Positions 1 to 48,065 of a stretch of 64,000 nt of DNA are shown here, piece by piece. The notes beneath the pieces were generated by a model that did not search any database, was not told the origin of the DNA, and was given only the letters and a program-made list of their open reading frames with translations. The DNA comes from Polaribacter sp. Q13. GTDB lineage: Bacteria > Bacteroidota > Bacteroidia > Flavobacteriales > Flavobacteriaceae. Within the stretch, counting starts at the first letter, position 1. Every line of letters starts with the position of its first letter. Location of the stretch: NCBI RefSeq assembly GCF_016858305.2, contig NZ_CP074436.1:4298001-4362000 (forward strand). The letters run 5' to 3'. Both the position numbers and the translations under genes were made by a program.

Positions 1-1517
1 TTATTGCTGCTTCTGTGCATTTTAGATTAACTGGGCAAAGCAACTTTTTAAATATTGCTGTTAAAATGGCAGATTTATTACATGCTTATTTTATGCCAGA
101 TACCAAGCATTACCAACGTTTTGGATTCAATCAAACTCAAATTATGGGCTTGGTAGAATTGTATAGAACAACAAGAGATAAAAAGTATTTAAAATTAGCA
201 GAGAAATTTATCAACCGAAGAGGAACGTACGAAATTAAACACGATGATACTACAATTGGTTACCCTATTGGAGACATGGTGCAAGAAAGAACTCCTTTCA
301 GAGAATCTGAAGAAGCGGTTGGTCACGCCGTTTTAGCCTTGTATTATTATGCAGGTGCAGCAGATGTATATGCAGAAACTGGTGAAAAAGCATTATTAAC
401 TTCTTTAGATAAATTATGGGAAAACGTTACAGGCAAAAAAATGTATGTAACCGGAGCTGTTGGGCAAGCGCATTATGGAGCTTCTACTAGTTTAGACATG
501 ATTGAAGAAGGGTTTATAGATGCCTACATGATGCCAAATATGACGGCTTATAACGAAACTTGCGCAAATTTATGTAATGCAATGTTTAGTCATAGAATGA
601 TGGGGATTAATGGTGAATCTAGATATGCAGATATTATAGAATTGGTATTATATAACTCTGGTTTATCAGGAATTAGTATTGAAGGGAAAGATTATTTTTA
701 TTCGAATCCTTTAAGAATGGTAAACAATTCTAGAAATTATGATTCGCATGATGATGTAACAGAAAGTCCGGTAAGACAACCGTATTTAGAATGTTTCTGT
801 TGTCCTCCAAACTTGGTAAGAACAATTTGTAAAACTTCTGGATGGGCGTATAACTTATCTGATAATGGTGTTTCTGTTGTTTTATTTGGTGGAAACAATT
901 TAGAGACAAAAATGTTAGATGGTGCTCCTTTAAAATTATCTCAAGATACAGAATACCCTTGGAAAGGTTTGGTAAAAATAACTATTGATGAATGTAAAAG
1001 TGAAGCTTTTGATATTCAGGTTAGAATACCTAAATGGGCAGTTGGCAGTACTTTAAAAGTAAATGGAGAAGATGCAGGTGTTGCTGTAAATCCAGGGAAT
1101 TTTGCAAACATCAATAGAACTTGGATAGCAGGAGATGTGATTGTTTTAGACATGCCAATGGAACCAACTTTTATTGAAGGTCATAATAGAATTGAAGAAG
1201 TAAGAAATCAATTAGCAGTAAAAAGAGGGCCGATTGTGTATACAATTGAAACTCCAGATTTACCAAAAGATACAGCTATTTTAGATGTGTATTTAAAAGG
1301 TGATGCTCCTTTAACAGCAGTTCATAAACCAGATTTTTTAGGTGGAGTTACGGTAATAGAAACAGAACTTTTACTAAGAGAAGGTAAAACGGATGAAATG
1401 TATCAAACAGTTACAAAACCCGTATTTAAGCCTTATAAAACGCAATTAGTGCCTTATTACGCTTGGAGTAATAGAGGGCAGGCAGAAATGACCGTGTTTA
1501 TGCCTGTTGTTTGGTAA
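1..1517 (+). CDS. GH127-type (DUF1680) glycosidase, 5' end cut by window
   Basis: The reading frame is open from the first bases (codons from base 3), so the start lies upstream of the window. The protein is a close paralogue of the complete one at 8496-10592. GH127 enzymes release beta-L-arabinofuranose or related sugars using a cysteine nucleophile held on zinc by one Glu and three Cys. Those positions are visible here: E-T-C (bases 555-563) and C-F-C-C-P-P-N (from base 792), matching the E-x-C and C-C pairs of the family. The C-terminal half is the usual beta-sandwich. A strong terminator follows and the next genes are sulfatase-locus genes, so it belongs to the polysaccharide locus. Family assignment is secure; the exact sugar is not, since GH127 also includes an aceric acid hydrolase. 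Confidence 0.88.
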   Translation, partial: IAASVHFRLTGQSNFLNIAVKMADLLHAYFMPDTKHYQRFGFNQTQIMGLVELYRTTRDKKYLKLAEKFINRRGTYEIKHDDTTIGYPIGDMVQERTPFRESEEAVGHAVLALYYYAGAADVYAETGEKALLTSLDKLWENVTGKKMYVTGAVGQAHYGASTSLDMIEEGFIDAYMMPNMTAYNETCANLCNAMFSHRMMGINGESRYADIIELVLYNSGLSGISIEGKDYFYSNPLRMVNNSRNYDSHDDVTESPVRQPYLECFCCPPNLVRTICKTSGWAYNLSDNGVSVVLFGGNNLETKMLDGAPLKLSQDTEYPWKGLVKITIDECKSEAFDIQVRIPKWAVGSTLKVNGEDAGVAVNPGNFANINRTWIAGDVIVLDMPMEPTFIEGHNRIEEVRNQLAVKRGPIVYTIETPDLPKDTAILDVYLKGDAPLTAVHKPDFLGGVTVIETELLLREGKTDEMYQTVTKPVFKPYKTQLVPYYAWSNRGQAEMTVFMPVVW

Positions 1518-11251: not shown

Positions 11252-12259
11252 ATGGAATTTTTACCACTTTTACTAGTAATTTTTGCAAGTGTATTTCAGG
11301 GCTCATTTGGACTTGGAATGAAATTTATGCCACCTCTTAAATGGGAGGCTTGGTGGCTGGTACATTCAGTTTTTGCATTAATTCTTGTGCCCACAATATG
11401 GGGACTTCTTGTAGTGCCAGATTTATTTACGGTACTTTCAAACGCGTCTCTTAATACTACATTATTAGCAATGACATTTGGTGCACTTTGGGGTGTTGGT
11501 GGTATTATGTTTGGAAAAAGTGTGCCTTATATTGGTATGTCTTTAACCTACGGAATTGTAATGGGAGTTTGTGCTGCTGCAGGTAGTTTAATTCCTTTCT
11601 TTGGCTTAGATAATTTTAAGGGATTGGCTTCTTTTCCATACATTATTACAGGAGTTATTGTAATGCTAATTGGAGTTGCTATAACGGCTTATGCAGGTAT
11701 CTTAAAAGATAGATTGCAGAAGGTTGATAATAAGGATGAGAAAGTTAATTTAAAAGTAGGAATTATTATTGCTGTTTTAAGTGGACTTTTATCAGCTGCA
11801 TTAGCTATTGGTTTTGATAAAGGTGGTGAAATTGGTTCTTTGGCTATTTCGTCTGGCGCAATACCTAGAAATAGTAGTTTAGCTATTTGGGTTGTTGTTT
11901 TATGGGGTGGTTTTATTGTGAATGCAGGGTATGCTATCTTTTTATTGATGAAGAACAAAACATGGAATTCCTTCTCTACACCTAATGCAGGGAAAGCTTA
12001 TATGTGGGCTATTGTTGCTGCTTTATTATGGTTTGGTGCTTTGGGAGTTTATGGACAAGGAGCAACTTTAATGGGAGATTTAGGAGCTGTAGTAGGATGG
12101 CCAATATTATTAGGCTTGTCACTTATAGTGGGTAATTTTTGGGCATATCTTAATAAAGAATGGAAAGATGCTAAAAAGCCTTTTAACATTATGCTATTTG
12201 GTCTTTTAGTGTTGATTATTGCTGTGGTAATTATCGGTTATGCAAATGGTGTTTCATAA
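11252..12259 (+). CDS. rhaT: L-rhamnose/H+ symporter family transporter (RhaT-like)
   Basis: A 335-residue protein with about ten transmembrane helices, close to the 344 residues of E. coli RhaT. The N-terminus (SVFQGSFGLGMKFMPPLKW followed by E-x-x-W) and the internal GxxWGxGGIMFGKSV segment fit the RhaT family of the drug/metabolite transporter superfamily. It would import L-rhamnose, or another deoxy-sugar, across the inner membrane by proton symport. That supports a 6-deoxyhexose as one product of this polysaccharide locus and links it to the oxidative sugar genes at 35-44 kb. The SGNH gene starts 8 bases after its stop (or overlaps it, if an earlier start is used), so the two form one unit. 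Confidence 0.82.
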   Translation: MEFLPLLLVIFASVFQGSFGLGMKFMPPLKWEAWWLVHSVFALILVPTIWGLLVVPDLFTVLSNASLNTTLLAMTFGALWGVGGIMFGKSVPYIGMSLTYGIVMGVCAAAGSLIPFFGLDNFKGLASFPYIITGVIVMLIGVAITAYAGILKDRLQKVDNKDEKVNLKVGIIIAVLSGLLSAALAIGFDKGGEIGSLAISSGAIPRNSSLAIWVVVLWGGFIVNAGYAIFLLMKNKTWNSFSTPNAGKAYMWAIVAALLWFGALGVYGQGATLMGDLGAVVGWPILLGLSLIVGNFWAYLNKEWKDAKKPFNIMLFGLLVLIIAVVIIGYANGVS

Positions 12260-24163: not shown

Positions 24164-26443
24164 ATGATTCAAAAAAGTATCTTGGTGATTTTTCTTTTTC
24201 TTGGTGTAAGCCTTTTTTCTCAATCTTTAGAAAAACAAATAAAATCTAAAGTATCAGTTTTAGAAAATCTAGTGGAAAAATTAGAATTAAAAAAAATTGA
24301 TAATTATAAAGAAAAATTGGCTTTAAATACAGTAGATATATTTAGAAAATTTGCAAAATGGGATGAAAATAATATTGATGAGAACACAAAACTTTATAAA
24401 AAAGTAGCTATTTATAAAAAGAAAGCGGCAGAAATGGCAACTAATTTGCCTGATTTTGAAAAAAAGGACATGTTACTTCTTTTAGATGAAAGTATACAAA
24501 ATGCCAATGAATTATTGACAGGTGAAATTTTTAGAAAAAAATATATAAGACCAAATTGGCATAAAATAGCTATCAAAGAAAACACTTTAGTAAATGGAAA
24601 TAGACCTGTTTTTCTGTCTGATTATACATGGAAACCAGGTACAAATCAATTAGATAAATATTTTGGAGAATTAGATGTTTTTTTAATAAGTCCTTCTCAA
24701 GTAAAGAATAAAAAAGGTGAAATTACTCCTCAAACAATTAAAAAAATTAAGGAAAGTTATAGCCAAAAAGCAGGTTTTGTGTTTGTTTCTCAAAAAAATA
24801 TTCCAAAATGGACTTTAACAGAGTTTGGAGAAGAGTTTGGTGAAATTCAAGGAAAACCATTTACAAAGTATGACATAGATAATCCTGGAGCAAGAATTTT
24901 AATGTCAAATTTATTTAAAGGAACTGTGCCTTTTTTAAAAGATAAAAAATTTACGCAATTAGGTTATATGTTAACGAATGAACCACGTTGGGCAAATTAC
25001 ACAGATGGAAAAAAGAAAGTGTGGTTTAGACAGGATGTTTCTAATTATACAATTAAAAAATTTGAAATATGGCTTCAAAAAAGACACAAAACAATTGCGC
25101 AATTAAATTCTCTTTGGAAAACGAACCTTGTTAATTTTAGTGAAATAGAAAAATTATTGCCTGTAGATTTATCAGAAAGAGGTACTCCTAAATGGTATGA
25201 TTGGACTACTTTTAATGAAGAAAGAGTGATAGATTGGTTTCAATTTTTAAAAGCAGAATTATTAAAGAATGATCCGAAGGCAAAAGTACATTTAAAAATA
25301 ATGCCATCAATTTTTACCGATAATAATGCAGATGCAGGTATAGATTTAGAAGCTTTAACAGAATTATCTGATATTAATGGAAACGATATTGCCGCACATT
25401 ATAATAATATAAAACCCAAAAAAATACATTCTGATTGGGATAAGAAATATGTGTTTGGTTGGAGAGAACTTTTTATGGGTTATGATTTCTTAAAATCGAT
25501 AAAACCAAATCAAATTAATTTTAATTCAGAAAGTCATTTGTTAAGCGGAAGCCATACAAGAGACTTAAATATGAATCCTAAATATGTTAGAGCAACTTAT
25601 TGGGCTGCTCATTTGTTAGGTTTAAATGCGTCTCAAACTTGGTATTGGCCAAGACAAAATGATGGCTCTTTGCGTAGAAATTTAACAGATGGTTATGCTG
25701 GTTCTAACAATCAGCAACCAAGAGTTACATTTGAATTAGAGAATACTTTAATCGATTTAAATACTTTTTCTGAAGAGGTTACAGCTTTTCAAAATCAAAG
25801 AAAACCAATTAGAATTTTTTATTCGAAGACCGCTGCAAAACAAAAAGGAGATTATATGGATGGTATTTTTGATGTATATGAACGTTTAAATTTTGAAGGA
25901 ATTTCTTTAGGGTTTGCGACTAAAAATATCATTAAAAAACAGGATAAAGCCAATTGGGATGTTATTTTAATTTACAATACGGAACACGTAACGGAAACAG
26001 AGTTTGAGGCTGTACAGCAGTATTTAGATGAAGGAGGTAGTGTTATTATGGATAAGAATAGTTTTAAAAGTAATGAATATGGCGAGCCATTAAAAAGCTT
26101 AGAATCAAAAAGTAATAATTTATTTATTTTAAATTCTTTGGAGGAAATGCAGTTAAAAGCATTTTCTTTTTTAAGAAGTAAAAAGGCGTTACCAGAAATA
26201 GTAGTTACAGAAAAAACAGATTCAGATTTTAAAACATGTACTTGGCGTTCTATAAAAACAGCTCATGGTAGAAACTTACTTTCAATTATTAATTTAGGTA
26301 AAAATAAAGTTCAATTAGAAGTTTCGTTTTCTAATAAAGAAAGTAAACCTGTTTGCAAAGATCTTATAAATGGAATTCCTGCTTCATCAACGCCGGTTCT
26401 TAAGCCTTATGAAGTCTATTTCGTAGAGGTTTCCGAGAAATAA
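24164..26443 (+). CDS. Secreted GH42-like (clan GH-A) glycosidase
   Basis: 759 residues with a signal peptide (ending LFSQ). About 110 helical residues precede a (beta/alpha)8 barrel (~150-510). The acid/base candidate is Glu in LTNEPRW (the N-E-P motif of clan GH-A), and a Glu in NSESHL is a candidate nucleophile. The segment IAQLNSLWKTNLVNF resembles the LN-x-x-W-x-T pattern of GH42 beta-galactosidases. Residues ~540-660 resemble the GH42 trimerisation/class I amidotransferase-like domain. It would cleave galactosidic or similar linkages in the periplasm, consistent with the DgoD gene at 40.7 kb. The helical N-terminal extension is not standard for GH42. It is followed 36 bases later by the DUF4380-like gene. 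Confidence 0.72.
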   Translation: MIQKSILVIFLFLGVSLFSQSLEKQIKSKVSVLENLVEKLELKKIDNYKEKLALNTVDIFRKFAKWDENNIDENTKLYKKVAIYKKKAAEMATNLPDFEKKDMLLLLDESIQNANELLTGEIFRKKYIRPNWHKIAIKENTLVNGNRPVFLSDYTWKPGTNQLDKYFGELDVFLISPSQVKNKKGEITPQTIKKIKESYSQKAGFVFVSQKNIPKWTLTEFGEEFGEIQGKPFTKYDIDNPGARILMSNLFKGTVPFLKDKKFTQLGYMLTNEPRWANYTDGKKKVWFRQDVSNYTIKKFEIWLQKRHKTIAQLNSLWKTNLVNFSEIEKLLPVDLSERGTPKWYDWTTFNEERVIDWFQFLKAELLKNDPKAKVHLKIMPSIFTDNNADAGIDLEALTELSDINGNDIAAHYNNIKPKKIHSDWDKKYVFGWRELFMGYDFLKSIKPNQINFNSESHLLSGSHTRDLNMNPKYVRATYWAAHLLGLNASQTWYWPRQNDGSLRRNLTDGYAGSNNQQPRVTFELENTLIDLNTFSEEVTAFQNQRKPIRIFYSKTAAKQKGDYMDGIFDVYERLNFEGISLGFATKNIIKKQDKANWDVILIYNTEHVTETEFEAVQQYLDEGGSVIMDKNSFKSNEYGEPLKSLESKSNNLFILNSLEEMQLKAFSFLRSKKALPEIVVTEKTDSDFKTCTWRSIKTAHGRNLLSIINLGKNKVQLEVSFSNKESKPVCKDLINGIPASSTPVLKPYEVYFVEVSEK

Positions 26444-27919: not shown

Positions 27920-28156
27920 TTTTCCAACGTTTCTAAAGTTAGACTGATATTACCTTAAAGAAGTAAAATAACATATAATAAGGATAAAATACAGTAATAA
28001 AGAGATAAATGACATATATCTAAAATTGAGATTATGCTGTTACTTTGTAATCGTAATTTTATGTTAAAAAATGTAGACTATATAATTAATAGTTGGTTTT
28101 TTTATCATAAGAGTTTACAAAAGCAAACAAATTCAATCAAATTCAAAATTAAATAC

Positions 28157-31100: not shown

Positions 31101-31243
31101 TAAGAGCTCAAAACCCATTAACCATAACTAAATATTCTGGTTATAACCCAGAAGTAGGCGGTGGTATACAAGCAAGAGGTTTAGATAAAAATACTGGACC
31201 AATATCCTCACAATATATGTTAGGGGTAAACATTAATTTTTAA
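28157..31243 (+). CDS. SusC/RagA-family TonB-dependent outer membrane receptor
   Basis: About 1028 residues. An in-frame ATG at 28034 gives an atypical N-terminus, whereas ATG 28157 opens a proper signal peptide (MKILNLLL... ending SSNAQ), so 28157 is chosen. A carboxypeptidase-like regulatory domain (VSGTVTSSEDQGPIPGVSVV) comes first. A plug domain follows (VVIGYGAVKKKEITGAV), then the TonB box region and a large beta-barrel ending in aromatic GVNINF. It imports oligosaccharides released by surface enzymes. It is paired with SusD 21 bases downstream, the hallmark of a polysaccharide utilization locus. Confidence 0.95.
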   Translation: MKILNLLLSKAKAGSFLLLLFALLCQFSSNAQSIKVSGTVTSSEDQGPIPGVSVVVKGTKNGVSTDFDGLFSIKANVGDLLEFSYIGMTQKVLKVKNATMNVVLDPSVESLQEIVVIGYGAVKKKEITGAVVQVKAEDIQSVVSSDLGSALQGQVSGVNIVSSSEPGGTSEILIRGVTSLSGDNTPLYVVDGVIQDGDPGIPPSDVETINVLKDAASTAIYGVRGATGVILITTKQGKPGSLQVRVNASYAIQHRRAAVPLMNSVEQTYFDVVQNRNVNGGYDDQVSLQILQQPRTFLNETNLSDLIFTNDVPTQDYNVNVSGGTEDITYNVSAGFFSQDGLQINSGYNRFNIRASTVYEKNKLRIQSSVSMNTDSRDIPQGNLLSQSIVYRPTQNGVNLDNLDELSQGGDDVNRLGWVIESLRTTNNYKTTRSAATLNLKYQATEHLNLSSNLGITSINSIGKIYRPYQEIYNNQNPPVLQSQPEDSFVSNRTRFTTNLVAEFGAIYNKVFAEDHDLTLTAFISGAKNTSEAFTATRNGATNDDVQVLNGATGTQFVSSGNDYTQTRIGLIGRLQYSYKGKYILSSSLRRDGSSKFPVDNRWGTFPSIALAWNVSDEPFWDKYKGTVNNFRLRLSQGTVGVDRIGDYLYSAGISQDINYASSTGAVSLGATQENFVNRVLKWEETTQQNIGFDFGFLRNRLTLSAEYYHSDKSNMLFPVFIPNSAGGGNNATVVLNVGDMVNSGLELALGFRGKVGNVRYRMNGTFSTNQNEVTKISGDTKFQLTTDNGLVGRAPQQSRVTALAVGREAAAFFLWRTDGILDTEVKLAEYQSNIDRNARMGDTKFIDQNNDGVLDESDRVYSGSGLPEYELGYTFNANYKNWDFSMNWYAALGQEIMNGFDAWAYGFGRHKDQIYQWSPQNQNSTVPTYRNDVTRHNNFLGYSDLWLEDGSYLRLRQVSMGYSFPKKTLEKMGLSRLRFYVRAQNPLTITKYSGYNPEVGGGIQARGLDKNTGPISSQYMLGVNINF

Positions 31244-31264
31244 TTTAATATAAATTTATTTGTG

Positions 31265-35484: not shown

Positions 35485-36639
35485 ATGACAATAGAAAAAA
35501 TAGAAGCGTTCGTTCTTAAAGATACTTTATCTAAAAGTTTTTTCTTTTCACAATGGGAATATGCAGAGCGTTGTATCTGTATTGTTAAAGTAACAGCATC
35601 TAACGGTCAACACGGTTGGGGAGAAGCTTATGGTCCTGCTACAATGGTAGAAGCAGGTATAAAATTATTAGAACCAACTGTTCTTGGAGAAAATCCTTTA
35701 GAAAATGAAGTAATTTGGAACAAAATGTACCGAAAGACTTTAGATTTCTCTAGAAGAGGTGTCTATATGGCTTCAGTTAGTGCTATAGATATTGCTATTT
35801 GGGATTTAAAAGGAAAAATTTTAGGATTACCAGTTTCAACTTTATTAGGTGGTGCTCATAGAAAAAAAATTCAACCCTATGCAACAGGTTTATACTTTAC
35901 AAATCACAATAATTTTTCTGATGGTTTTGTAGAAGAAGCTAAATTATACGTTTCTCAAGGTTTTAAAGCCATGAAAATGAAAGTAGGTTTAGGTATTAAA
36001 GAAGATGTTGCTAACGTAAAACTTATTAGAGAAACTATTGGACCGGATATAGATTTAATGGTAGATTCTAATCATGCGTATACTTTTAGAGAAGCTGTAG
36101 AGTTATCAAAAAAAATAGAGAAATACGATATCAAATGGTTTGAAGAACCTATCTCACCTGAGTTTTATGAACAATATAGCGAGTTAAGAGAAAAAACTAC
36201 GATTCCTATTTCTGGTGGAGAATGTGAGTATTTACGGTTTGGATTTAATGAATTGATCAAAAATAAATCTGTAGATATTCTACAACCAGATATTTGTGCA
36301 AGTGGAGGTTTAACAGAAGCAAAAAGAATTGCTGCCTTAGCAAGTACAAATGGTATCGATTTAATACCTCATACTTGGGGAACTTCTATTGGTTTACATG
36401 TTGGTTTGCATTTTATAGCGAACTTAGAGGCGATTCCTGGTAGAATGTATCAAGCAAATTACCTAATGGAGTTTGATCAAACAGAAAACGGACTTAGAGA
36501 TAACTTAACATTTCCAAAATTAGAAATGAAAGATGGTATGTTAGAAGTACCAAATAGACCAGGCTTAGGTATTGACGTAGATGAAGATATGTTACGTAAG
36601 TATTGTATCAGTTCTACGACCAATGAAATAGAAGTTTAA
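35485..36639 (+). CDS. Enolase-superfamily sugar-acid dehydratase or cycloisomerase
   Basis: 384 residues of the mandelate racemase/muconate lactonizing group. The Lys-x-Lys base is in AMKMKVG. Metal ligands are Asp in MVDSNH, Glu in WFEEP and Glu in GGECEY. The Asp-His dyad is LQPDICASGG and LIPHTWGTS. Such enzymes dehydrate aldonates such as L-rhamnonate or L-fuconate to 2-keto-3-deoxy acids; the PHTWGT...GLHF region also resembles galactarolactone and 3,6-anhydrogalactonate cycloisomerases. The gene forms an operon with an aldehyde dehydrogenase and a HpcH aldolase, so its product is most likely a 2-keto-3-deoxy acid. The choice between the two activities is open. Confidence 0.82.
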   Translation: MTIEKIEAFVLKDTLSKSFFFSQWEYAERCICIVKVTASNGQHGWGEAYGPATMVEAGIKLLEPTVLGENPLENEVIWNKMYRKTLDFSRRGVYMASVSAIDIAIWDLKGKILGLPVSTLLGGAHRKKIQPYATGLYFTNHNNFSDGFVEEAKLYVSQGFKAMKMKVGLGIKEDVANVKLIRETIGPDIDLMVDSNHAYTFREAVELSKKIEKYDIKWFEEPISPEFYEQYSELREKTTIPISGGECEYLRFGFNELIKNKSVDILQPDICASGGLTEAKRIAALASTNGIDLIPHTWGTSIGLHVGLHFIANLEAIPGRMYQANYLMEFDQTENGLRDNLTFPKLEMKDGMLEVPNRPGLGIDVDEDMLRKYCISSTTNEIEV

Positions 36640-36665
36640 AAAATATAAAATAAATAAACAAGCAT

Positions 36666-38120
36666 ATGAAGACTAGAAACTTCGGATATAAAAAGTTATA
36701 CATCGACGGTAAATTAGTTGATGCAGAAAGTGGAGAAAGAGAAGATGTTATTTGTCCTGCAACAGGAGAGGTAATTGCTCAAGTTGCAAAAGCGGGTAAA
36801 GCAGATGCAGAAAAAGCATTGATATCTTCACAAAAAGGATTTAAATATTGGTCTAAATTATCTTTATCAGAAAGAACAGTTTGGATGCTAAAATTGCGTG
36901 ATGCAATTTTAGAAAAATCGGATGAACTTAGAGATGCCATGGTGCATGAAATGGGGAAAACCTATGCAGGTTCTGAAGAAGATATTGATAGACTTACAGA
37001 AGCATTAGAATGGTATCCTAATGCAATGAAAAATTTAAGAGAAGAGCAAATTCCAGATTATGAAGGAACGCACACTCATAAAATGATTTCTAAACCAGCA
37101 GGTGTTGCTTTAGCATACTTAGCATGGAATTTTCCATTATTAAATGTTGGGTATAAAATTGGGCCAGCATTAGCTTCTGGATGCTCCTTAATCATTAAAC
37201 CATCAACATTATCGCCTTTATCTGCATATATGGTTGGTGAAATTTTAGAAAGCATTAATTTCCCTGCAGGAGTGGTTACAATTTTAGCAGGTTCTAGTAG
37301 AGAGGTGGCAACACCAATGACTACAAGTACAATACCAGCTGTAATTACCATGATTGGTTCTACACAAACGGGTCAAAGAATTATTGCAGATAGTACAACA
37401 TCTATCAAAAAATTAGGAATGGAATTAGGAGGAAATGCTCCTTTCATTGTTTTTGAAGATGCAGATATAGAAACAGCTTTAAACTTAGCAATTATCTTAA
37501 GGTTCCATAATACAGGTCAAATTTGTGTAGCTGCCAACAGAATATTTGTTCATAAAAATATTTATGATAAATTCTTAAAAGAATACGTAAAAAGAGCATC
37601 AGAATTAAAAATTGGTTTTGGAGTTAAAGAAAACGAAGGTGTTTTTATGGGGCCATTGGCTTCTAGTGATGCTAGAGATAGAATGTTTGAATTAGTTGAA
37701 GATGCTGTTAGTAAAGGAGCAACTTTAGAATATGGAGGTAAAATTCCTGAAGATTTACCTAAAGGTGGATATTGGATGCAACCAACCGTAGTTTCTGGTA
37801 TTACAACTGAGATGAAATTGTTTAGAGAAGAGACTTTTGGGCCTGTTGCAGGTATTATGTCTTTTGATACTGACGATGAAGTTTTAGAATTAGCAAACGA
37901 TACAGAATTTGGTTTAGCGTCTTATATTTTTACAAATAATAACAAAAGAATAGAAAGATTTACAGAAGACTTAGAATTTGGAGAAATTCATATAAATGGT
38001 GTAAAATATGCCATATATTTGCCACACGGAGGATTTAAGAATAGTGGAATAGGTCACGATTGTTCTCACCTTGCATTAGATGATTATTTAGTTAAAAAAC
38101 GTATTACATCAGCATTATAA
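36666..38120 (+). CDS. NAD(P)-dependent aldehyde dehydrogenase
   Basis: 484 residues, normal length for the family. The cofactor loop is GSTQTGQ, the general-base Glu lies in LGMELGGNAP, and the nucleophile Cys is in NTGQICVAANR. The substrate is set by context. After KDR-type aldolase cleavage it would oxidise L-lactaldehyde to L-lactate. Alternatively it could oxidise an anhydro-sugar to its acid before the enolase-type step. It is 26 bases after the enolase-family gene and 3 bases before the aldolase gene, clearly one operon. Confidence 0.88.
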   Translation: MKTRNFGYKKLYIDGKLVDAESGEREDVICPATGEVIAQVAKAGKADAEKALISSQKGFKYWSKLSLSERTVWMLKLRDAILEKSDELRDAMVHEMGKTYAGSEEDIDRLTEALEWYPNAMKNLREEQIPDYEGTHTHKMISKPAGVALAYLAWNFPLLNVGYKIGPALASGCSLIIKPSTLSPLSAYMVGEILESINFPAGVVTILAGSSREVATPMTTSTIPAVITMIGSTQTGQRIIADSTTSIKKLGMELGGNAPFIVFEDADIETALNLAIILRFHNTGQICVAANRIFVHKNIYDKFLKEYVKRASELKIGFGVKENEGVFMGPLASSDARDRMFELVEDAVSKGATLEYGGKIPEDLPKGGYWMQPTVVSGITTEMKLFREETFGPVAGIMSFDTDDEVLELANDTEFGLASYIFTNNNKRIERFTEDLEFGEIHINGVKYAIYLPHGGFKNSGIGHDCSHLALDDYLVKKRITSAL

Positions 38121-38123
38121 ATT

Positions 38124-38888
38124 ATGGCGAAAAATTTATTACAAAACAGTTTAAAAGAAGGAGAAACTTTATATGGTCCCTTCTGTAAAATACAAGATCC
38201 AGCAATTGTAGAAATTGCGGCTTTAAGTGGTTTCGATTTTGTGATCATAGATATGGAACATGGTCCTTATAGTATAGAATCTGCTCAGAATATGATTAGA
38301 GCAGCCGAAGCTAGAGGAATTACACCTGTGGTTAGAGTTACGGAAAATTCTGAAACTTTAATTTTAAGAACTTTAGATATTGGCGCAAAATGTATTCAAG
38401 TACCTCAAATATGCACAAAAGCAGACGCTGATAGATTAGTGAAATCTACTAAGTTTTATCCGAAAGGAGAAAGAGGGATGTGTCGTTATGTAAGAGCTGC
38501 AGAATATACAAATATTAGCGGTGCAGATCATTTTGGAAAAGCAAATGATAACATTACAACAATTATCCATATCGAAGGAATGGAAGGTATTAATAACCTA
38601 GAAGAAATTGTACAAGTAGATGGTATTGATGTGATCTTTTTAGGTCCTTATGATTTATCTCAATCTTGTGGAGTTCCTGGTGATGTTAATAACCCTAAAG
38701 TAGTAGATGCTATGAAAGGTGCTGTAGAAACTGCTAAAAAGTACGGTAAGTTTGTAGGTACTTTTACAGAGACTCCAGAAAAAGCAAAAATGTGGAAAGA
38801 AATAGGTGTACAATATATTTCTTATGCTGTAGATGTTGGTTTAGTAATGAATACTTTTAAAGATATTACAAAACAATTAAAAGGATAA
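38124..38888 (+). CDS. HpcH/HpaI-family 2-keto-3-deoxy sugar-acid aldolase
   Basis: 254 residues, the usual size of class II pyruvate aldolases (HpaI, GarL, RhmA/YfaU). Visible features are FVIIDMEHGPYS (catalytic His region), RVTENSE, and metal-binding Glu and Asp in HIEGMEG and FLGPYDLSQS. It cleaves a 2-keto-3-deoxy acid to pyruvate and an aldehyde; with L-rhamnonate-derived substrate the products are pyruvate and lactaldehyde. It starts 3 bases after the aldehyde dehydrogenase stop. Its terminator has been displaced by an IS256 insertion (38952-40286). Confidence 0.88.
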   Translation: MAKNLLQNSLKEGETLYGPFCKIQDPAIVEIAALSGFDFVIIDMEHGPYSIESAQNMIRAAEARGITPVVRVTENSETLILRTLDIGAKCIQVPQICTKADADRLVKSTKFYPKGERGMCRYVRAAEYTNISGADHFGKANDNITTIIHIEGMEGINNLEEIVQVDGIDVIFLGPYDLSQSCGVPGDVNNPKVVDAMKGAVETAKKYGKFVGTFTETPEKAKMWKEIGVQYISYAVDVGLVMNTFKDITKQLKG

Positions 38889-38951
38889 CAGTAAAACGTA
38901 TCTTTTTATGAAACGATAGTTATTGTTAAAAATAATATTTAGTAAAAAAAC

Positions 38952-40286
38952 GACACTATCCTAAAATCTGTGTAAGTTGAAAAACTCAGGGTTAAATTAT
39001 TTATAGTTTAATCCTGTTTTCAAATATAGCTAAAAATTGATTAAGTATAATTCCCCAATTTCTAATTGGCATTGTCCACTTTTTAGTACTTTCTCTCAGT
39101 GCTAAAAAAACAGATTTCATGACAGCTTCATCGGTTGGGAACGAGAGTTTGTTTTTAGTATATTTTCTAATTTTCCCGTTGAGATTTTCTATAAGATTTG
39201 TGGTATAAATTATAGTTCTTATTTCTATAGGGAAATCAAAGAAAACGGTAAGTTCATCCCAGTTATTTTCCCAACTTTTAATCGCATAAGAATATTTAGA
39301 ATCCCATTTATCTTTAAAATCTTTTAAGGATGCCTTTGCAGCTTCTTTTGTAGGTGCAGTATAGATTTGTTTCATGTCTCTGGTAAACTCTTTTTTGTCT
39401 TTCCAAACAACGTAACGACAAGAGTTTCTAATCTGATGCACTACACATATTTGAGTAACAGAATTAGGGAAAACAGTTTTAATTGTATCTGTAAATCCGT
39501 TTAAATTGTCGGTTGCTGTGATTAAGATATCTTGTGTTCCTCTAGCTCTAATATCTGTTAAAACACTCATCCAAAAAGCAGAAGATTCATTCTTCCCTAA
39601 CCATAAACCAAGTACTTCTTTTTTACCATCGGTTCTCAAACCTACAGCAATGTAAATGGTTTTGTTGATGACTTTAGAGTTTTCTCTAACTTTAAAAACG
39701 ATTCCATCCATCCAAACGATAAGATATGTTGCTTCTAAAGGTCTATTCTTCCAAGCTATAATATCATTGGTGATACTATCGGTAATTCTTGATATAGTAC
39801 TTGTGGAGATGTTAAAATCGTAAAGTTCTCGTATTTGTTCTTCTATATCACTATTGCTCATCCCTTTTGCATAAAGGGAAATTATAATGTTTTCTATACC
39901 TTCTGTAGTACTTTCTCTTTTTTTAACAATCATTGGGTTAAAAGAACTTTCACGGTCTCTTGGAACGTTTATTTCTGTCTCCCCTAAAGTTGTTTTTAGT
40001 TTCTTTTTGGTATACCCATTTCGAAGATTAGTTGATTTACTTTTTTGATGTCGATCATAATCTAGGTGAGCATCTAATTCTCCCTCAAGGATCTTTTCTA
40101 TGCCTCGTTTATGAAGCTGTTCTAAAAAATTAGTAAGTTCTGATCCGCTTTTAAATTGCTTTAAAAAATCTTCGTTTAAAATGTCTTCTGGTTTCATAAG
40201 TATGTAAAATTTAAAATTAATAAAAAAATCTCAGTTAATTAATTAACCTGAGATTTTAAAACTTACACACTTTATGAGACAGTGCC
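38952..40286 (-). mobile_element. IS256-family insertion sequence, complete
   Basis: A 1335-bp element with one transposase gene. The imperfect terminal inverted repeats start GACACTATCC on the left and, read inward from the right, GGCACTGTCTC; both continue to a shared GTGTAAGTT. It is bounded by an exact 8-bp duplication, AAAAAAAC, at 38944-38951 and 40287-40294, the size expected for IS256. An intact transposase, intact ends and an exact duplication suggest a recent insertion. Confidence 0.92.
39001..40197 (-). CDS. IS256-family transposase
   Basis: 398 residues with the mutator-type DDE layout: [15 protein letters not shown] near the N-terminus, catalytic Asp in [10 protein letters not shown], a second Asp in [21 protein letters not shown], and the acidic residue in the [14 protein letters not shown] segment. 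Full length and uninterrupted, so probably active. It is the only gene of the element. Confidence 0.93.
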
Positions 40287-40290
40287 AAAA

Positions 40291-40324
40291 AAACCTTTTA
40301 GAGTTATCTAAAAGGTTTTTTTTT
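40291..40324 (+). terminator. Original terminator of the aldolase operon, now beyond the IS
   Basis: AAACCTTTTAGA (40291-40302) pairs with TCTAAAAGGTTT (40307-40318) and runs into a long T tract. The IS256 target duplication overlaps the left edge of this stem. The hairpin therefore once lay about 55-60 bases after the aldolase stop codon and is now 1.4 kb away. Confidence 0.85.
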
Positions 40325-40466
40325 GTTTAATTTTTTTTTATCTCACTGATAGAATTGAATATTTTACATAATTATTTTTTTATATTCATCTAACTATTTT
40401 AAGTTGCTTTAAAATACTTTTTTAGTTTTTGACTTTTCTAATTTTAAAAAAGACATGTCTTTCCGT

Positions 40467-40506
40467 GCTTGTCGAAGACTTTATTTCTCCTTCGACAAGC
40501 TCAGGA
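40467..40506. repeat. Dispersed inverted repeat of the CTTCGACAAGC type
   Basis: GCTTGTCGAAG (40467-40477) and CTTCGACAAGC (40490-40500), followed by TCAGGA, form a perfect 11-bp hairpin. This CGACAAGCTCAGG sequence is a widespread intergenic repeat in Bacteroidota; a related form is at 59963-59992. Confidence 0.5.
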
Positions 40507-40592
40507 AAACATTTGGGTTTTTAATTGTTTTAGCGACATCATAAAATTCATTTGGATAAATGTAAAAGTCAATAGAACGTTTCTCAAAAAAA

Positions 40593-40646
40593 AAATGAGT
40601 AAAACACAACACTAAGATTATTCTTAGCAATGCATTTTACTCATTT
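40593..40646 (-). terminator. Terminator of the galactonate dehydratase gene
   Basis: AAATGAGTAAAA (40593-40604) and TTTTACTCATTT (40635-40646) pair, with an inner CTAAGA/TCTTAG stem. On the minus strand the hairpin ends in a T-run (the A tract at 40586-40595). Confidence 0.75.
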
Positions 40647-40689
40647 TATAAAATTCTTTCTTAAAAAAGAAAGTTAAATCATTAACGGT

Positions 40690-41847
40690 TTACCATTCAG
40701 CAAAACTTCCGTCTTCATGTCTCCAAATAGGGTTAGACCAATCATGTCCTATTTTTTGAGCTTCACGTAATTTATCTTCATCAATATCTACTCCTAAACC
40801 TGGTTTTTTAAGTAAATCGATATAACCATCTTTTACATCAAATACTTCTGGATTAGACATATAATCTAAGATGTCATATCCTTTATTATAATGTATACCA
40901 ATACTGCTTTCTTGAATAATTGCGTTAGAAGACACAAAATCTACATGTAAACAAGATGCTAAGGCTACAGGTCCAAGCGGACAGTGAGGGGCTAAAGTAA
41001 TATCATAAGCTTCTGCCATAGTAGCAATTCGTCTTACTTCAGAAATACCACCTGCATGACTTAAATCTGGTTGAATAATATCTACAACACCTTGGTGTAA
41101 TATTTCTTTAAAATCCCATCTAGAAAACATACGTTCTCCAGTAGCAATAGGAATACTTGTATATCCGTATATATGCTTTAAGGCATCATTGTTTTCTGTT
41201 AATACAGGTTCTTCAATAAACAATGGTTCATAAGGAGCCAATTCGTCTATCAATCGTTTTACCATTGGTTTGTGAACTCTACCATGAAAATCTAAACCGA
41301 TATCTAAATCATATCCGAATTCTTCTCTTAAAAGTTTAATGTTATGAGCTACTTTTTTAACATCCTTCATAGAAGATACCCATTCCATTGCCCCAGTAGC
41401 ATTCATTTTTACGGCTTTAAAGCCATCTTTTACTTTTTGATGTGCTTGTTCTAATACAACATCCGGATTGTCTCCACCGATCCAACAATACATTTTCATT
41501 TTATCACGAACAGCACCTCCTAAAAGTTCGTGCACTGGTACACCTAAGTGTTTTCCTTTTATATCCCATAAAGCTTGGTCTATACCAGAAATAGCACTCA
41601 TTAAGATTGCACCTCCTCTATAGAATCCACCTCTATATAGAATTTGCCATATATCCTCTATTTTACTTGCGTCTTTACCAATTAAAAATTTTTCTAATTC
41701 TTTTACGCATGCAGCAACAGAATCGGCCTTACCTTCTATAACAGGTTCTCCCCAACCAATAATACCAGATTGGGTAGTTATTTTAAGAAATAACCAACGT
41801 GGTGGCACTTTAAATAATTCTATTTTAACAATTTTTAAATCGTTCAT
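40690..41847 (-). CDS. dgoD: D-galactonate dehydratase (DgoD)
   Basis: 385 residues from ATG at 41847; an upstream in-frame ATG (41886) adds 13 atypical residues. Similarity to E. coli DgoD runs end to end: PPRWLFLKI near the start, GWGEPVIEGKA, RGGFYRGGAILMSAISGIDQ, GLDFHGRVHKPM, LFIEEPVL, ATGERMFSRW, IIQPDLSHAGGI, APHCPLGPVALASCLHVDFV, and WRHEDGSFAEW at the end. Metal ligands (Asp in LDFHGR, Glu in EEP, Glu in GERM) and the His of PHCPLG are conserved. It converts D-galactonate to 2-keto-3-deoxy-D-galactonate. It is divergent from the SDR/lactonase pair that could make galactonate. No KDGal kinase or aldolase of the Dgo type is in the window. Confidence 0.92.
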   Translation of the reverse strand: MNDLKIVKIELFKVPPRWLFLKITTQSGIIGWGEPVIEGKADSVAACVKELEKFLIGKDASKIEDIWQILYRGGFYRGGAILMSAISGIDQALWDIKGKHLGVPVHELLGGAVRDKMKMYCWIGGDNPDVVLEQAHQKVKDGFKAVKMNATGAMEWVSSMKDVKKVAHNIKLLREEFGYDLDIGLDFHGRVHKPMVKRLIDELAPYEPLFIEEPVLTENNDALKHIYGYTSIPIATGERMFSRWDFKEILHQGVVDIIQPDLSHAGGISEVRRIATMAEAYDITLAPHCPLGPVALASCLHVDFVSSNAIIQESSIGIHYNKGYDILDYMSNPEVFDVKDGYIDLLKKPGLGVDIDEDKLREAQKIGHDWSNPIWRHEDGSFAEW

Positions 41848-41957
41848 AAATTCTATTTTTAAGTTATTAAGATGTAACACTTTCAAATTTTGTTAGTGTT
41901 TACATTAGGCTAATATTTTTTTTTCTAAAATAATCCAAGACAACAAAGGTCATATAT

Positions 41958-41965
41958 CAAAGGTA
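41958..41965 (-). promoter_or_regulatory. Candidate -7 promoter box for dgoD
   Basis: TACCTTTG on the minus strand matches TAnnTTTG and lies 110 bases before the dgoD start, within the 368-base divergent region 41848-42215. The rest of that region is AT-rich with no further recognised site; no clear box was found for the plus-strand SDR gene. Confidence 0.4.
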
Positions 41966-42215
41966 AAAAGAAGTTCTTAAGGGTTCTATTTTTGTATCTG
42001 TAAGTAAATGAAAACTTTTATTGCTTTAATCTAAATGTTTACTGTATTTATTAATTTCTGTTTTTTTAAACATTAAAAATCAATGTTTTATGATGTGATT
42101 TGATGTGGTTGTTAAAAATAGTTTTACTGAGAATAACATATAAATGACTCTTAAAGACTTTTTCTAAATAGAATATTTAGAGTTTTACGCAACAAATATA
42201 AAATTATATTTATTT

Positions 42216-42965
42216 ATGAAAACAGTAATGATTGTTGGTGGGAATAGAGGAGTTGGTAAAGAGATTCTAAAAGCATCTTTAGATAAAGGTTATAATGTTG
42301 CCTTTTGTAGCCGCAAAGAAGAAGAAGCTAAAGAAATTATCAAATCTTTAAAGGCTGAAGATAAACTCTATTTTCATAGAATTGATTTAAATTCTATAGA
42401 TGAACTTGAGAACTTTGTTATTCAAACAAAAAAGAAATTTGGTAGTATTGATGCTTTGGTTATATATTCTGGAATTACACCTGTGGCTTCATTAACCGAT
42501 ACAGAAGAGGATGTTTATGATAGCGTTTTTAATGTGAATCTTAAAGCTCCTTATTTTTTAATAAAACATGTTATAAAAGTAATGAAAGAACAAGGTACTG
42601 GTGGTTCTATTGTCTTTTTTGGTTCTGCTCATATGGATTATGGTCAAATTGATAGAACAGCTTATGCTCTTACTAAAGGGACGCTTTATACTCTTTCTAG
42701 ACATATTGCACGTCATTATGCAGGATTTGGAATTCGATCTAATTATGTAGTAATGGGTTGGACACATACAGAAGGAGAGTTAGAGTTAAGAAAAGAAGAA
42801 GGAATAAGTGCTGAAGAATTAAAAAATAAAGCAGCAGCTATACTTCCTATGGGGCGTATGTTAACTCCTAAGGATCCTGTACCTGCAGTAATGTATCTTA
42901 TTTCTGATGATTCTGCGATGACAACCGGATCTAAGATAAGAATAACAGCAGGAGAATATATATAA
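42216..42965 (+). CDS. Short-chain dehydrogenase/reductase, likely sugar dehydrogenase
   Basis: 249 residues of the classical SDR family. The cofactor loop is GGNRGVG (residues 8-14), with catalytic Ser137, Tyr150 and Lys154 (Y-A-L-T-K) and the structural Asn in NVNLK. The C-terminus is GEYI. The first loop Gly replaces the usual Thr. It is followed 23 bases later by an SMP-30-type lactonase. That pair would oxidise an aldose to its lactone and open it, feeding DgoD and/or the enolase-type enzyme. Alternatively it could be a 2-keto-3-deoxy-acid 4-dehydrogenase, as in other rhamnose and fucose pathways. Confidence 0.8.
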   Translation: MKTVMIVGGNRGVGKEILKASLDKGYNVAFCSRKEEEAKEIIKSLKAEDKLYFHRIDLNSIDELENFVIQTKKKFGSIDALVIYSGITPVASLTDTEEDVYDSVFNVNLKAPYFLIKHVIKVMKEQGTGGSIVFFGSAHMDYGQIDRTAYALTKGTLYTLSRHIARHYAGFGIRSNYVVMGWTHTEGELELRKEEGISAEELKNKAAAILPMGRMLTPKDPVPAVMYLISDDSAMTTGSKIRITAGEYI

Positions 42966-42988
42966 CAAATAAAACAAAAAAATATTTT

Positions 42989-43807
42989 ATGATTTCATCT
43001 TTAATTTTTCACTCTAATTCAGAACTTTTAGAAGGTCCTGTTTTTGATAAAGGAAATAATTTATTATACTTTGTTTCCATTTTAGATTGTTTGGTTTATT
43101 GCTATAACCCGGCAACTAAAGAGATTCTGAGCATGAAACTAGATTCACCTGTAAGTTGTATTTATTTTATAGAAAAAAAAGTAATTTTAGTTTCGTCTAA
43201 AGACGGATTTTTTAAAGTAGACTTTAATACAATAGAAAAGGAATTTGCTTTTCAAATTGATATTGACAAACTTGTTAGATATAACGATGGAATTTCTGAT
43301 CCAATTGGTAGAATTATCATTGGTACAATGGGATATCCAGAAGTAAAAGAAGGTGTAGGAAATGTTTATTCTTATTATAAAGGAGAATCTAAAACCATTA
43401 TAAAAAACACTACTATTTCTAATGGTTTAGCTTTTTCTACAGATAATAAGTTTTTGTACTTTATTGATACACCAACAAAGAAGGTTGCAAAATACTCTTA
43501 TGATATAGAAACTGGAGAAGTAGATTTTATGTCTTTTGTAATAGAATTAAAAGAGGATAGTTTTCCTGACGGAATGTGTATTGATAAAAACGGAATGTTA
43601 TGGATTGCCGAATGGGGAGGAGCATGTATCTCTAAATGGAATCCTTTAAACGGAGAAAGATTAGAAGAAGTAAAATTACCTTGTACAAACGTTACATCGT
43701 GTTGTTTTGATAATGATAATAACTTGTATATATCTACTGCCAAAGAAGAAGAAAAAGAAGATGTTTTGGGAGGTGGATTGTATTTTGTTAAATTAAATTC
43801 TTTTTAA
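42989..43807 (+). CDS. SMP-30/gluconolactonase-family lactonase
   Basis: 272 residues, six-bladed propeller of the SMP-30 family. Metal-site residues are visible as LLEGPVFDKGNNLLYFV (first Glu), the Asn in TISNGLAFSTDNKFLYF, and the Asp in FPDGMCIDKNGMLWIAEWGG. No signal peptide, so cytoplasmic. It hydrolyses aldonolactones such as rhamnono-, fucono- or galactono-lactone. It follows the SDR gene in the same operon and ends at a bidirectional terminator. Confidence 0.88.
   Translation: MISSLIFHSNSELLEGPVFDKGNNLLYFVSILDCLVYCYNPATKEILSMKLDSPVSCIYFIEKKVILVSSKDGFFKVDFNTIEKEFAFQIDIDKLVRYNDGISDPIGRIIIGTMGYPEVKEGVGNVYSYYKGESKTIIKNTTISNGLAFSTDNKFLYFIDTPTKKVAKYSYDIETGEVDFMSFVIELKEDSFPDGMCIDKNGMLWIAEWGGACISKWNPLNGERLEEVKLPCTNVTSCCFDNDNNLYISTAKEEEKEDVLGGGLYFVKLNSF

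Positions 43808-45469: not shown

Positions 45470-48065
<2,596 letters not shown>

What the first reader, a model, noticed from the sequence alone, without database searches (positions are those of the whole stretch)
35485..43807. Non-phosphorylative sugar-acid route next to a sulfated-glycan uptake locus
Enolase-superfamily dehydratase, aldehyde dehydrogenase and HpcH aldolase are in one tight operon, and an SDR plus SMP-30 lactonase lie 4 kb away beside DgoD. With RhaT at 11.3 kb this can form: L-rhamnose (or similar) to lactone to aldonate to 2-keto-3-deoxy acid to pyruvate and lactaldehyde to lactate. No kinase or isomerase for the classical route is present in the window. A complete oxidative deoxyhexose route inside a flavobacterial polysaccharide locus is unusual. 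The competing reading is anhydro-galactose catabolism (aldehyde dehydrogenase first, cycloisomerase second).
Basis: partly seen in the sequence, partly recalled or inferred. Interest (0 to 1): 0.75.

Follow-up and report, generated by a model that had tools for sequence, protein, structure and literature searches.

The report
Kinase-free carrageenan sugar pathway variant
These genes most likely let a marine flavobacterium burn the sugars of carrageenan (a red-seaweed polysaccharide), not rhamnose, and the usual kinase-plus-aldolase last step seems to be replaced by a single aldolase that needs no ATP.

Summary
The stretch belongs to a carrageenan-type utilisation locus (GH167, two GH127, sulfatases, SusCD). 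The enolase-type enzyme is 56% identical to Zobellia DauB (3,6-anhydro-D-galactonate cycloisomerase) and shares its pocket motifs; the aldehyde dehydrogenase is closest to DauA. DgoD, SDR and lactonase fit a galactose branch; both arms would meet at 2-keto-3-deoxy-D-galactonate (KDGal). The unusual part is the end: kinase DauC is absent genome-wide, no DauD-type aldolase lies in the window, and an HpcH/HpaI aldolase sits 3 bp after dauA. HpcH follows dauA in 23 of 80 related loci, none with the kinase/KDPG-aldolase modules within 12 kb. Of 46 genomes, 14 lack an extra KDPG aldolase; all 14 carry HpcH. Exceptions: eight genomes carry both systems 17-43 kb apart, and tree-corrected tests are underpowered. 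I infer that HpcH cleaves KDGal to pyruvate and D-glyceraldehyde; untested, and the fate of glyceraldehyde is open. A new variant of a known pathway.

The parts
35485..36639 (+). dauB-type: 3,6-anhydro-D-galactonate cycloisomerase (enolase superfamily)
   Evidence: 5olc (ZgDauB) 500 bits against 289 for the next hit; 210/372 identical to ZgDauB, 132/371 to AtGCI, pocket segments match ZgDauB; K166, D194, E220, E246, H296, W298, D87 invariant in A1
36666..38120 (+). dauA-type: 3,6-anhydro-D-galactose dehydrogenase (ALDH)
   Evidence: 6pnu (DauA of P. fuliginea) 489 bits against 343 for the next hit; 222/470 identical; a homologue in 69 of 80 dauB loci
38124..38888 (+). [quoted passage not shown]
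   Evidence: Pfam HpcH_HpaI 130 bits; below the cut-off of all four NCBIfam models listed; directly after dauA in 23 of 80 loci; D43, E45, H46, R71, D85, E151, D177 kept (roles recalled)
38944..40294 (-). IS256-family element 38952-40286 with 8-bp direct repeat AAAAAAAC on both sides; transposase 39001-40197 (-)
   Evidence: NF033543 415 bits against 150; imperfect terminal repeats and direct repeat read by eye
40287..40322 (+). terminator-like hairpin, probably of the dauB-dauA-hpcH operon, now separated from it by the IS
   Evidence: 16-pair stem with T tail (pattern match only; 6 found, 3.2 expected in the stretch)
40690..41886 (-). dgoD: D-galactonate dehydratase (enolase superfamily)
   Evidence: NF010624 641 bits, cut-off 311
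42216..42965 (+). SDR, inferred D-galactose 1-dehydrogenase
42989..43807 (+). SMP-30/regucalcin-type lactonase, inferred galactonolactonase
   Evidence: SGL 199 bits; regucalcin 134 bits; no NCBIfam match; next to SDR and dgoD in the same two relatives
11252..12259 (+). RhaT-family DMT sugar symporter, of the kind that accompanies dauAB
   Evidence: Pfam RhaT 115 bits; below all five RhaT cut-offs of NCBIfam; homologue near dauB in 32 of 80 loci
24164..26443 (+). GH167, beta-neocarrabiose-releasing family
   Evidence: 9whd 897 bits, 6ptm 616 bits
8496..10592 (+). GH127 (family that includes the alpha-1,3-(3,6-anhydro)-D-galactosidases DagA); specificity not settled
   Evidence: PF07944 332 bits; best curated model is aceric acid hydrolase, 752 bits, below its cut-off of 950
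15..1517 (+). GH127, second copy; the frame matches the domain only from profile position 137, so the gene probably starts left of the window
   Evidence: PF07944 219 bits
3665..5143 (+). sulfatase
   Evidence: PF00884 225 bits
6898..8490 (+). sulfatase
   Evidence: PF00884 175 bits
18814..20460 (+). sulfatase
   Evidence: PF00884 177 bits
28034..33049 (+). SusC/SusD pair (28034-31243, 31262-33049)
   Evidence: Pfam TonB barrel and plug, SusD_RagB

Best explanation
The segment encodes the monosaccharide end of a carrageenan utilisation locus, with two arms that meet at 2-keto-3-deoxy-D-galactonate (KDGal). Arm 1: 3,6-anhydro-D-galactose is oxidised by the ALDH (DauA) to 3,6-anhydro-D-galactonate, which the enolase-type cycloisomerase (DauB) turns into KDGal. 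Arm 2: D-galactose is oxidised by the SDR to a lactone, opened by the SMP-30 lactonase to D-galactonate, and dehydrated by DgoD to KDGal. Instead of phosphorylating KDGal (DauC) and splitting the phosphate ester (DauD), the cell splits KDGal directly with the metal-dependent HpcH/HpaI aldolase encoded 3 bp behind dauA, giving pyruvate and D-glyceraldehyde without ATP. Supported here by sequence: identities of DauA, DauB and DgoD and the carrageenan context. Inferred: the SDR and lactonase specificities, the HpcH substrate, and that HpcH serves both arms. Not resolved: how D-glyceraldehyde enters central metabolism.
For: DauB/DauA assignment; activities of the Zobellia and Pseudoalteromonas enzymes from passages of PMC5698469 and PMC6923384. 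Carrageenan context: GH167, GH127s, sulfatases, SusCD; two GH16s left of the window whose best curated model is kappa-carrageenase, though far below its cut-off. DgoD. Kinase and aldolase: no DGOK in the own genome; the single KDPG aldolase lies at 1.237 Mb, more than 1.3 Mb away either way round, beside a PfkB kinase, a PFK and a LacI regulator. HpcH in place of the pair: within 12 kb of dauB, 0 of 23 HpcH loci carry KDPG aldolase, DGOK or PfkB, against 33 of 57 loci without HpcH. DGOK occurs in 15 of 46 genomes and HpcH (300 bits or more; the next match has 149) in 26 of 46 (25 of 45 searched plus the own), never together. All 14 of 46 genomes without an extra KDPG aldolase (130 bits or more) have HpcH (13 the dauA-linked form, one only HpcH2); all 20 genomes without HpcH have the extra aldolase. 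Link to galactonate: Flavicella marina has an HpcH2-DgoD / SDR-SMP30 cluster.
Confidence: 0.66

Rival explanations
1. Same carrageenan pathway, but KDGal is phosphorylated by the remote PfkB-type kinase and split by the remote KDPG aldolase; HpcH acts on another 2-keto acid or is a side activity.
For: A PfkB kinase and a KDPG aldolase lie together at about 1.237 Mb of this genome. PfkB + KDPG aldolase pairs do stand near dauB in 19 of 80 loci, so this kinase class can serve the pathway, and eight genomes carry both systems.
Against: The own copy scores 107 bits, in the range of the one aldolase that nearly every genome examined has, whereas the dauB-linked ones score about 134-198 bits; it sits with PFK and LacI, far from the carrageenan locus. 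It does not explain why HpcH directly follows dauA in 23 of 80 loci.
Confidence: 0.2
2. Oxidative L-rhamnose (or L-fucose) route: SDR, lactonase, enolase-type dehydratase, KDR aldolase and lactaldehyde dehydrogenase.
For: Family-level make-up fits; a RhaT-family protein is present; no rhamnose isomerase in the genome.
Against: The models for the rhamnose steps that were listed fail; DauB and DauA are the nearest solved relatives by wide margins; GH167 points to carrageenan; RhaT-type transporters accompany dauB.
Confidence: 0.03
3. 3,6-anhydro-L-galactose (agar) catabolism.
For: Same enzyme superfamilies act on the L-sugar in Vibrio sp. EJY3 (PMC5698469). Agar enzymes were not excluded gene by gene: 13199-14653 is a GH43-like protein that no model places, and GH16 also holds agarases (recalled).
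Against: The Vibrio cycloisomerase (5xd7) scores 143 bits against 500 for ZgDauB; GH167 is a carrageenan family; the GH16s lean to kappa-carrageenase.
Confidence: 0.05
4. The dgoD/SDR/SMP-30 cassette is an unrelated neighbour that merely came to lie beside the carrageenan operon.
Against: The legend of Fig. 1 in PMC6262041 lists galactonate dehydratase, lactonase and SDR among genes of carrageenan loci; PMC6923384 proposes convergence of both arms at KDGal; in Flavicella marina the cassette has its own HpcH.
Confidence: 0.3

Closest known systems
dauABCD pathway of Zobellia galactanivorans (Ficko-Blean et al. 2017, PMC5698469)
   Same: Oxidation of 3,6-anhydro-D-galactose and cycloisomerisation to KDGal by homologous enzymes within a carrageenan cluster with GH127 enzymes, sulfatases and a DMT sugar/H+ symporter
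   Different: No DGOK-type DauC anywhere in this genome and no DauD in the window; an HpcH/HpaI aldolase stands in the operon. The paper suggested a non-phosphorylative variant for species without dauC but, in the sections I read, named no enzyme for it and kept dauD in the core
Carrageenan loci of Pseudoalteromonas (PMC6923384) and P. carrageenovora PUL 7 (PMC6262041)
   Same: Anhydrogalactose pathway plus De Ley-Doudoroff enzymes (galactonate dehydratase, lactonase), convergence at KDGal proposed; GH167-type enzyme
   Different: P. carrageenovora carries DauC and DauD homologues, and PMC6923384 speaks of all enzymes for the anhydrogalactose steps; here a single unphosphorylated aldol cleavage is inferred
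HpcH/HpaI aldolases (YfaU 2vws, GarL 1dxe, HpaI)
   Same: Family and catalytic-type residues
   Different: Below the four NCBIfam cut-offs listed; where YfaU and the HpaI enzymes have Gln and Ala, His149 and Tyr176 stand in all 24 HpcH1 and 7 HpcH2 rows
Non-phosphorylative Entner-Doudoroff variants (Picrophilus, cited in PMC5698469)
   Same: Cleavage of a 2-keto-3-deoxy acid without a kinase
   Different: That the archaeal aldolases belong to another family is recalled, not tested

Membership tests
[quoted passage not shown]
   500 bits to 5olc against 289 to AtGCI and about 112-134 to the rhamnonate dehydratases among the best 60 of 187; 56% identity. Caveat: 5olc is a long branch (1.95) against the other 81 rows
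[quoted passage not shown] base K166; acid H296; W298 and D87 | tested here: met
   Invariant in alignment A1 of 15 rows; list of residues from PMC5698469. These are shared with AtGCI, so they show the reaction type, not the substrate
[quoted passage not shown]
   -
[quoted passage not shown]
   489 bits to 6pnu against 343; 47% identity; 26 bp from dauB
Core carrageenan utilisation system as defined in PMC5698469 | dauA, dauB and a GH127 (dagA) | tested here: met
   GH127 specificity not settled
Core carrageenan utilisation system as defined in PMC5698469 | dauC (KDGal kinase) and dauD (KDPGal aldolase) | tested here: not met
   No DGOK in the genome; no such kinase or aldolase in the window; one remote KDPG aldolase. 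So it is filed as a variant, not as a member of the core as defined
Core carrageenan utilisation system as defined in PMC5698469 | AraC-type regulator cgrA | tested here: inconclusive
   No match to one AraC from a related locus among window frames; other regulators not sought
De Ley-Doudoroff galactose route | D-galactonate dehydratase | tested here: met
   NF010624 641 bits, cut-off 311
De Ley-Doudoroff galactose route | Galactose dehydrogenase and lactonase | tested here: inconclusive
   SDR and SMP-30 present but no specific model passes among those listed
Non-phosphorylative L-rhamnose route | L-rhamnonate dehydratase, KDR aldolase, L-rhamnose dehydrogenase | tested here: not met
   171 against 393, 142 against 441 and 114 against 400 bits
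HpcH/HpaI class II aldolases | HpcH_HpaI domain with catalytic-type residues | tested here: met
   130 bits; D43, E45, H46, R71, D85, E151, D177 conserved with YfaU and HpaI; their roles are recalled
HpcH/HpaI class II aldolases | KDGal as substrate | not testable with these tools
   -

The most novel reading that the evidence does not exclude
A large group of marine Bacteroidota has a kinase-free end of carrageenan catabolism: two related subfamilies of HpcH/HpaI aldolase are dedicated KDGal aldolases, one fixed behind dauA (anhydrogalactose arm) and one able to stand beside dgoD (galactose arm), and this one-gene module has been swapped repeatedly with the two-gene kinase + phospho-aldolase modules while dauA and dauB stayed in place. 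It would be the missing enzyme for the non-phosphorylative variant suggested in 2017.
Probability: 0.53. Interest if true: 0.55.

Novelty: new variant of a known kind. Interest (0 to 1): 0.42.

Why it matters
Carrageenan is a major red-seaweed polysaccharide, and its unusual sugar 3,6-anhydro-D-galactose is known to be burned through a kinase and a phospho-aldolase. If an HpcH aldolase does both jobs, the cell spends no ATP at this step, the end product is glyceraldehyde rather than glyceraldehyde 3-phosphate, and carrageenan loci that look incomplete (no dauC, no dauD) would be complete. It gives a concrete candidate for the non-phosphorylative variant suggested in PMC5698469, testable with a few purified enzymes and one gene deletion. 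For the original claim, it removes a supposed rhamnose route and explains why a 'RhaT' stands in a carrageenan locus.

Tried and rejected
Rhamnose or fucose route: rejected on family cut-offs and nearest solved relatives. Agar (L-anhydrogalactose) route: put low on scores to 5xd7, not excluded gene by gene. Strict mutual exclusion of HpcH and the kinase route: first seen within 12 kb, then weakened by HpcH2 and by distant KDPG aldolases in two Lutibacter genomes; only HpcH against DGOK stays disjoint. Glycerate kinase as a partner of HpcH: predicted, tested, not borne out. Tree-corrected tests: too few independent contrasts; in the first test the two traits were complementary by construction, because loci with neither module were dropped, so it is no independent evidence. 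The 130-bit line for an 'extra' KDPG aldolase was set; the lowest counted has 132 bits and the next below 127 (in G007, which has a stronger one too). IS-driven joining of the two halves: the IS has an 8-bp direct repeat on both sides and sits before a terminator-like hairpin, so it more likely landed between genes already neighbours; among 80 dauB loci none had a close dgoD within 12 kb, so the age of the neighbourhood is unknown. Structure prediction and scans of viral or metagenome collections were not used. Literature: nine searches were answered; listings were capped at 20 (of 23 papers; of 47; of 172). None of the rows shown ties an HpcH aldolase to carrageenan catabolism; one search lists all 19 papers that hold both words, and no title among them concerns carrageenan breakdown by bacteria. 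A paper that calls the enzyme by another name could be missed. For PMC5698469 I read the abstract, sections 10 and 11 and passages; for PMC6923384, PMC6262041, PMC6952198, PMC10958521 and PMC13168452 passages only; all other papers as search listings. Supplements were not open to me.
Full report
What is there. The window is bases 4,298,001-4,362,000 of a one-contig 4.42-Mb genome. The enolase-type gene 35485-36639, the aldehyde dehydrogenase 36666-38120 and the HpcH/HpaI aldolase 38124-38888 form a tight operon. After an IS256-family element come dgoD (40690-41886, minus strand) and, divergently, an SDR and an SMP-30 lactonase.

What it is. The enolase-type protein scores 500 bits to 5olc, which PMC5698469 identifies as DauB, the 3,6-anhydro-D-galactonate cycloisomerase of Zobellia galactanivorans. 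The next solved relative, AtGCI, scores 289, the Vibrio anhydro-L-galactonate cycloisomerase 143 and the rhamnonate dehydratases listed about 112-134 (best 60 of 187 shown). Identity is 210/372 to ZgDauB and 132/371 to AtGCI; in segments around the active site (FSQW, TGLYFT, GGECEY, PHTWGT) it follows ZgDauB where AtGCI differs. The catalytic and metal residues named in PMC5698469 are invariant in 15 rows, but AtGCI shares them. A caution: 5olc stands on a long branch against the 60-94% group to which the window belongs, so function is carried over at 56% identity. The aldehyde dehydrogenase scores 489 bits to 6pnu, next 343, 222/470 identical. 6PNU is among the entries deposited with PMC6923384, where the aldehyde dehydrogenase structure in the passages I saw is DauA (the match of code to protein is my inference).

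The surroundings fit carrageenan: GH167 (897 bits to 9whd, 616 to 6ptm; PMC6923384 gives GH167 as beta-neocarrabiose-releasing), two GH127 genes, three sulfatases, a SusCD pair, and two GH16 genes left of the window whose best curated model is kappa-carrageenase, at 47 and 53 bits far below its cut-off of 350. Less clear: one GH127 (8496-10592) is nearest the aceric acid hydrolase model, below its cut-off, and the GH43-like protein 13199-14653 is placed by no model. PMC5698469 lists a DMT sugar/H+ symporter (ZGAL_3157) after dauB; a homologue of the window's 'RhaT' lies near dauB in 32 of 80 related loci, 14 of the 23 with HpcH, and it fails the RhaT cut-offs. So RhaT is no sign of rhamnose. 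The rhamnose models listed for the enzymes fail.

The unusual part. In the published route KDGal is phosphorylated by DauC and split by DauD. Here DGOK is absent from the genome, no DGOK, PfkB or KDPG-aldolase homologue lies in the window, and the single KDPG aldolase lies at 1.237 Mb, more than 1.3 Mb away either way round, with PfkB, PFK and LacI genes. I fetched 80 dauB loci (60-94% identity, the best 80 of 282 stretches). HpcH follows dauA in 23, always on the same strand, with gaps of -8 to 22 bp. Within 12 kb of dauB none of these 23 has KDPG aldolase, DGOK or PfkB; 33 of the other 57 have at least one (19 PfkB + aldolase, 11 DGOK + aldolase, 2 aldolase alone, 1 DGOK alone), and 24 have none, 12 of them on loci of 21 kb or more. 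On the dauB tree (82 rows, quick method; 27 rows without a label not counted) the HpcH label needs at least 7 changes, 3 forced by well supported branches; for instance Seonamhaeicola (HpcH) and Tamlana (PfkB + aldolase) stand in one group with 99% SH-aLRT. Carrageenan hallmark genes (GH127, GH167 or GH16) are in the flanks of 10 of the 23 HpcH loci and 34 of all 80, sulfatases of 21 and 65.

Whole genomes temper this. In 45 genomes behind the loci plus the own one, HpcH at 300 bits or more occurs in 26 and DGOK in 15, never both (Fisher p 4.5e-8 on the 45, blind to relatedness). But six genomes with PfkB + KDPG aldolase near dauB carry a second HpcH (57-59%) 17-43 kb from that aldolase, and two Lutibacter genomes with HpcH1 carry the PfkB-type aldolase 34-37 kb away. 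Every one of the 46 genomes has some KDPG aldolase. Counting those over 130 bits as 'extra', 14 of 46 genomes have none, and all 14 have HpcH (13 the dauA-linked form, Flavivirga rizhaonensis only HpcH2), while all 20 genomes without HpcH have one (p 4.9e-5, blind to relatedness). Two of the 14 are small genomes (1.6 and 1.9 Mb), where absence means less. On the tree only 3 independent contrasts remain, which cannot reach significance. So HpcH looks able to stand in for the kinase and phospho-aldolase, but the two are not strict alternatives. In G022 and G024, which have HpcH1, a KDPG-type aldolase stands beside dgoD, so the galactose arm may differ from species to species.

Mechanism. HpcH/HpaI enzymes are metal-dependent aldolases of 2-keto-3-deoxy acids (family knowledge). 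The residues usually named for catalysis and metal binding (D43, E45, H46, R71, D85, E151, D177 here; roles recalled) are kept in all 24 HpcH1 and 7 HpcH2 rows, with His149 and Tyr176 where YfaU and the HpaI enzymes have Gln and Ala. The simplest reading is KDGal to pyruvate + D-glyceraldehyde. What becomes of D-glyceraldehyde is open: a glycerate kinase (PF02595) is present here, but beside an MGH1-like hydrolase, a TonB receptor and a symporter, and it does not track HpcH (36 of 46 genomes; 6 of 26 HpcH genomes lack it); the other glycerate-kinase family tried (PF13660) is absent.

The IS. The element 38952-40286 has imperfect terminal repeats and an 8-bp direct repeat AAAAAAAC at both ends (read by eye). 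It lies between the hpcH stop and a terminator-like hairpin at 40287-40322, so hpcH and dgoD were probably already neighbours when it landed.

Novelty. The carrageenan locus, DauA/DauB and convergence with the De Ley-Doudoroff route are published. A non-phosphorylative variant was suggested in PMC5698469 for species without dauC. In the rows shown by nine searches of the held library (three listings capped) I found no paper that names an HpcH/HpaI aldolase for this step; most subscription papers are not held. I rate it a new variant of a known kind.

Noticed in passing
38944-40294: IS256-family insertion with an 8-bp direct repeat AAAAAAAC on both sides, between the HpcH operon and its likely terminator.
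   Followed up: partly
L083 8678-9448, L084 9091-9843, L085 8875-9621, L086 9020-9766, L088 8552-9322, L089 8248-8994: A second HpcH subfamily (57-59% identical) inside carrageenan-type loci of the genomes behind Mariniflexile, Tamlana, Hyunsoonleella, Flavivirga and Algibacter loci; all of these but L086 also carry PfkB + KDPG aldolase.
   Followed up: partly
L087 9082-13086: Flavicella marina: a compact cluster HpcH2-DgoD / SDR-SMP30 away from its dauBA-hpcH; looks like a portable galactose-to-pyruvate module.
   Followed up: partly
L046-L048, L050, L052-L056: Single-cell and metagenome genomes (uncultured Bacteroidetes AG- and AH- series, MED-G20, MED-G14 and others) carry dauB with an AraC gene and, in most, dauA, sulfatase and DMT genes, without GH127, GH167 or GH16 hits in the flanks held; where such cells would find anhydrogalactose is unclear.
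   Followed up: no
L108 8319-16372 (own genome, about 3.675-3.683 Mb): Glycerate kinase, sodium symporter, MGH1-like hydrolase, TonB receptor and a LacI regulator in a row; looks like mannosyl- or glucosylglycerate use.
   Followed up: partly
8496-10592: GH127 protein that scores 752 bits to the aceric acid hydrolase model (cut-off 950) inside a carrageenan-type locus; its real substrate is open.
   Followed up: no
57735-58736 (-): Protein with a TseH-like domain (type VI effector-like, PF25218) and a DUF6695 C-terminal domain.
   Followed up: no
45966-48065: Old-yellow-enzyme type NADH:flavin oxidoreductase with a pyridine-nucleotide domain, right of the T9SS-tagged protein; no NCBI model among the 25 shown reaches its cut-off.
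   Followed up: no
1707-3593: FG-GAP / UnbV-ASPIC protein whose homologues recur in the related loci (for example L003, L005, L018, L083); function in the locus unknown.
   Followed up: no
22644-23771 and 26480-27919: Two proteins without a Pfam match over its cut-off that recur in related loci (L020, L065, L106 and L001-L004, L030).
   Followed up: no
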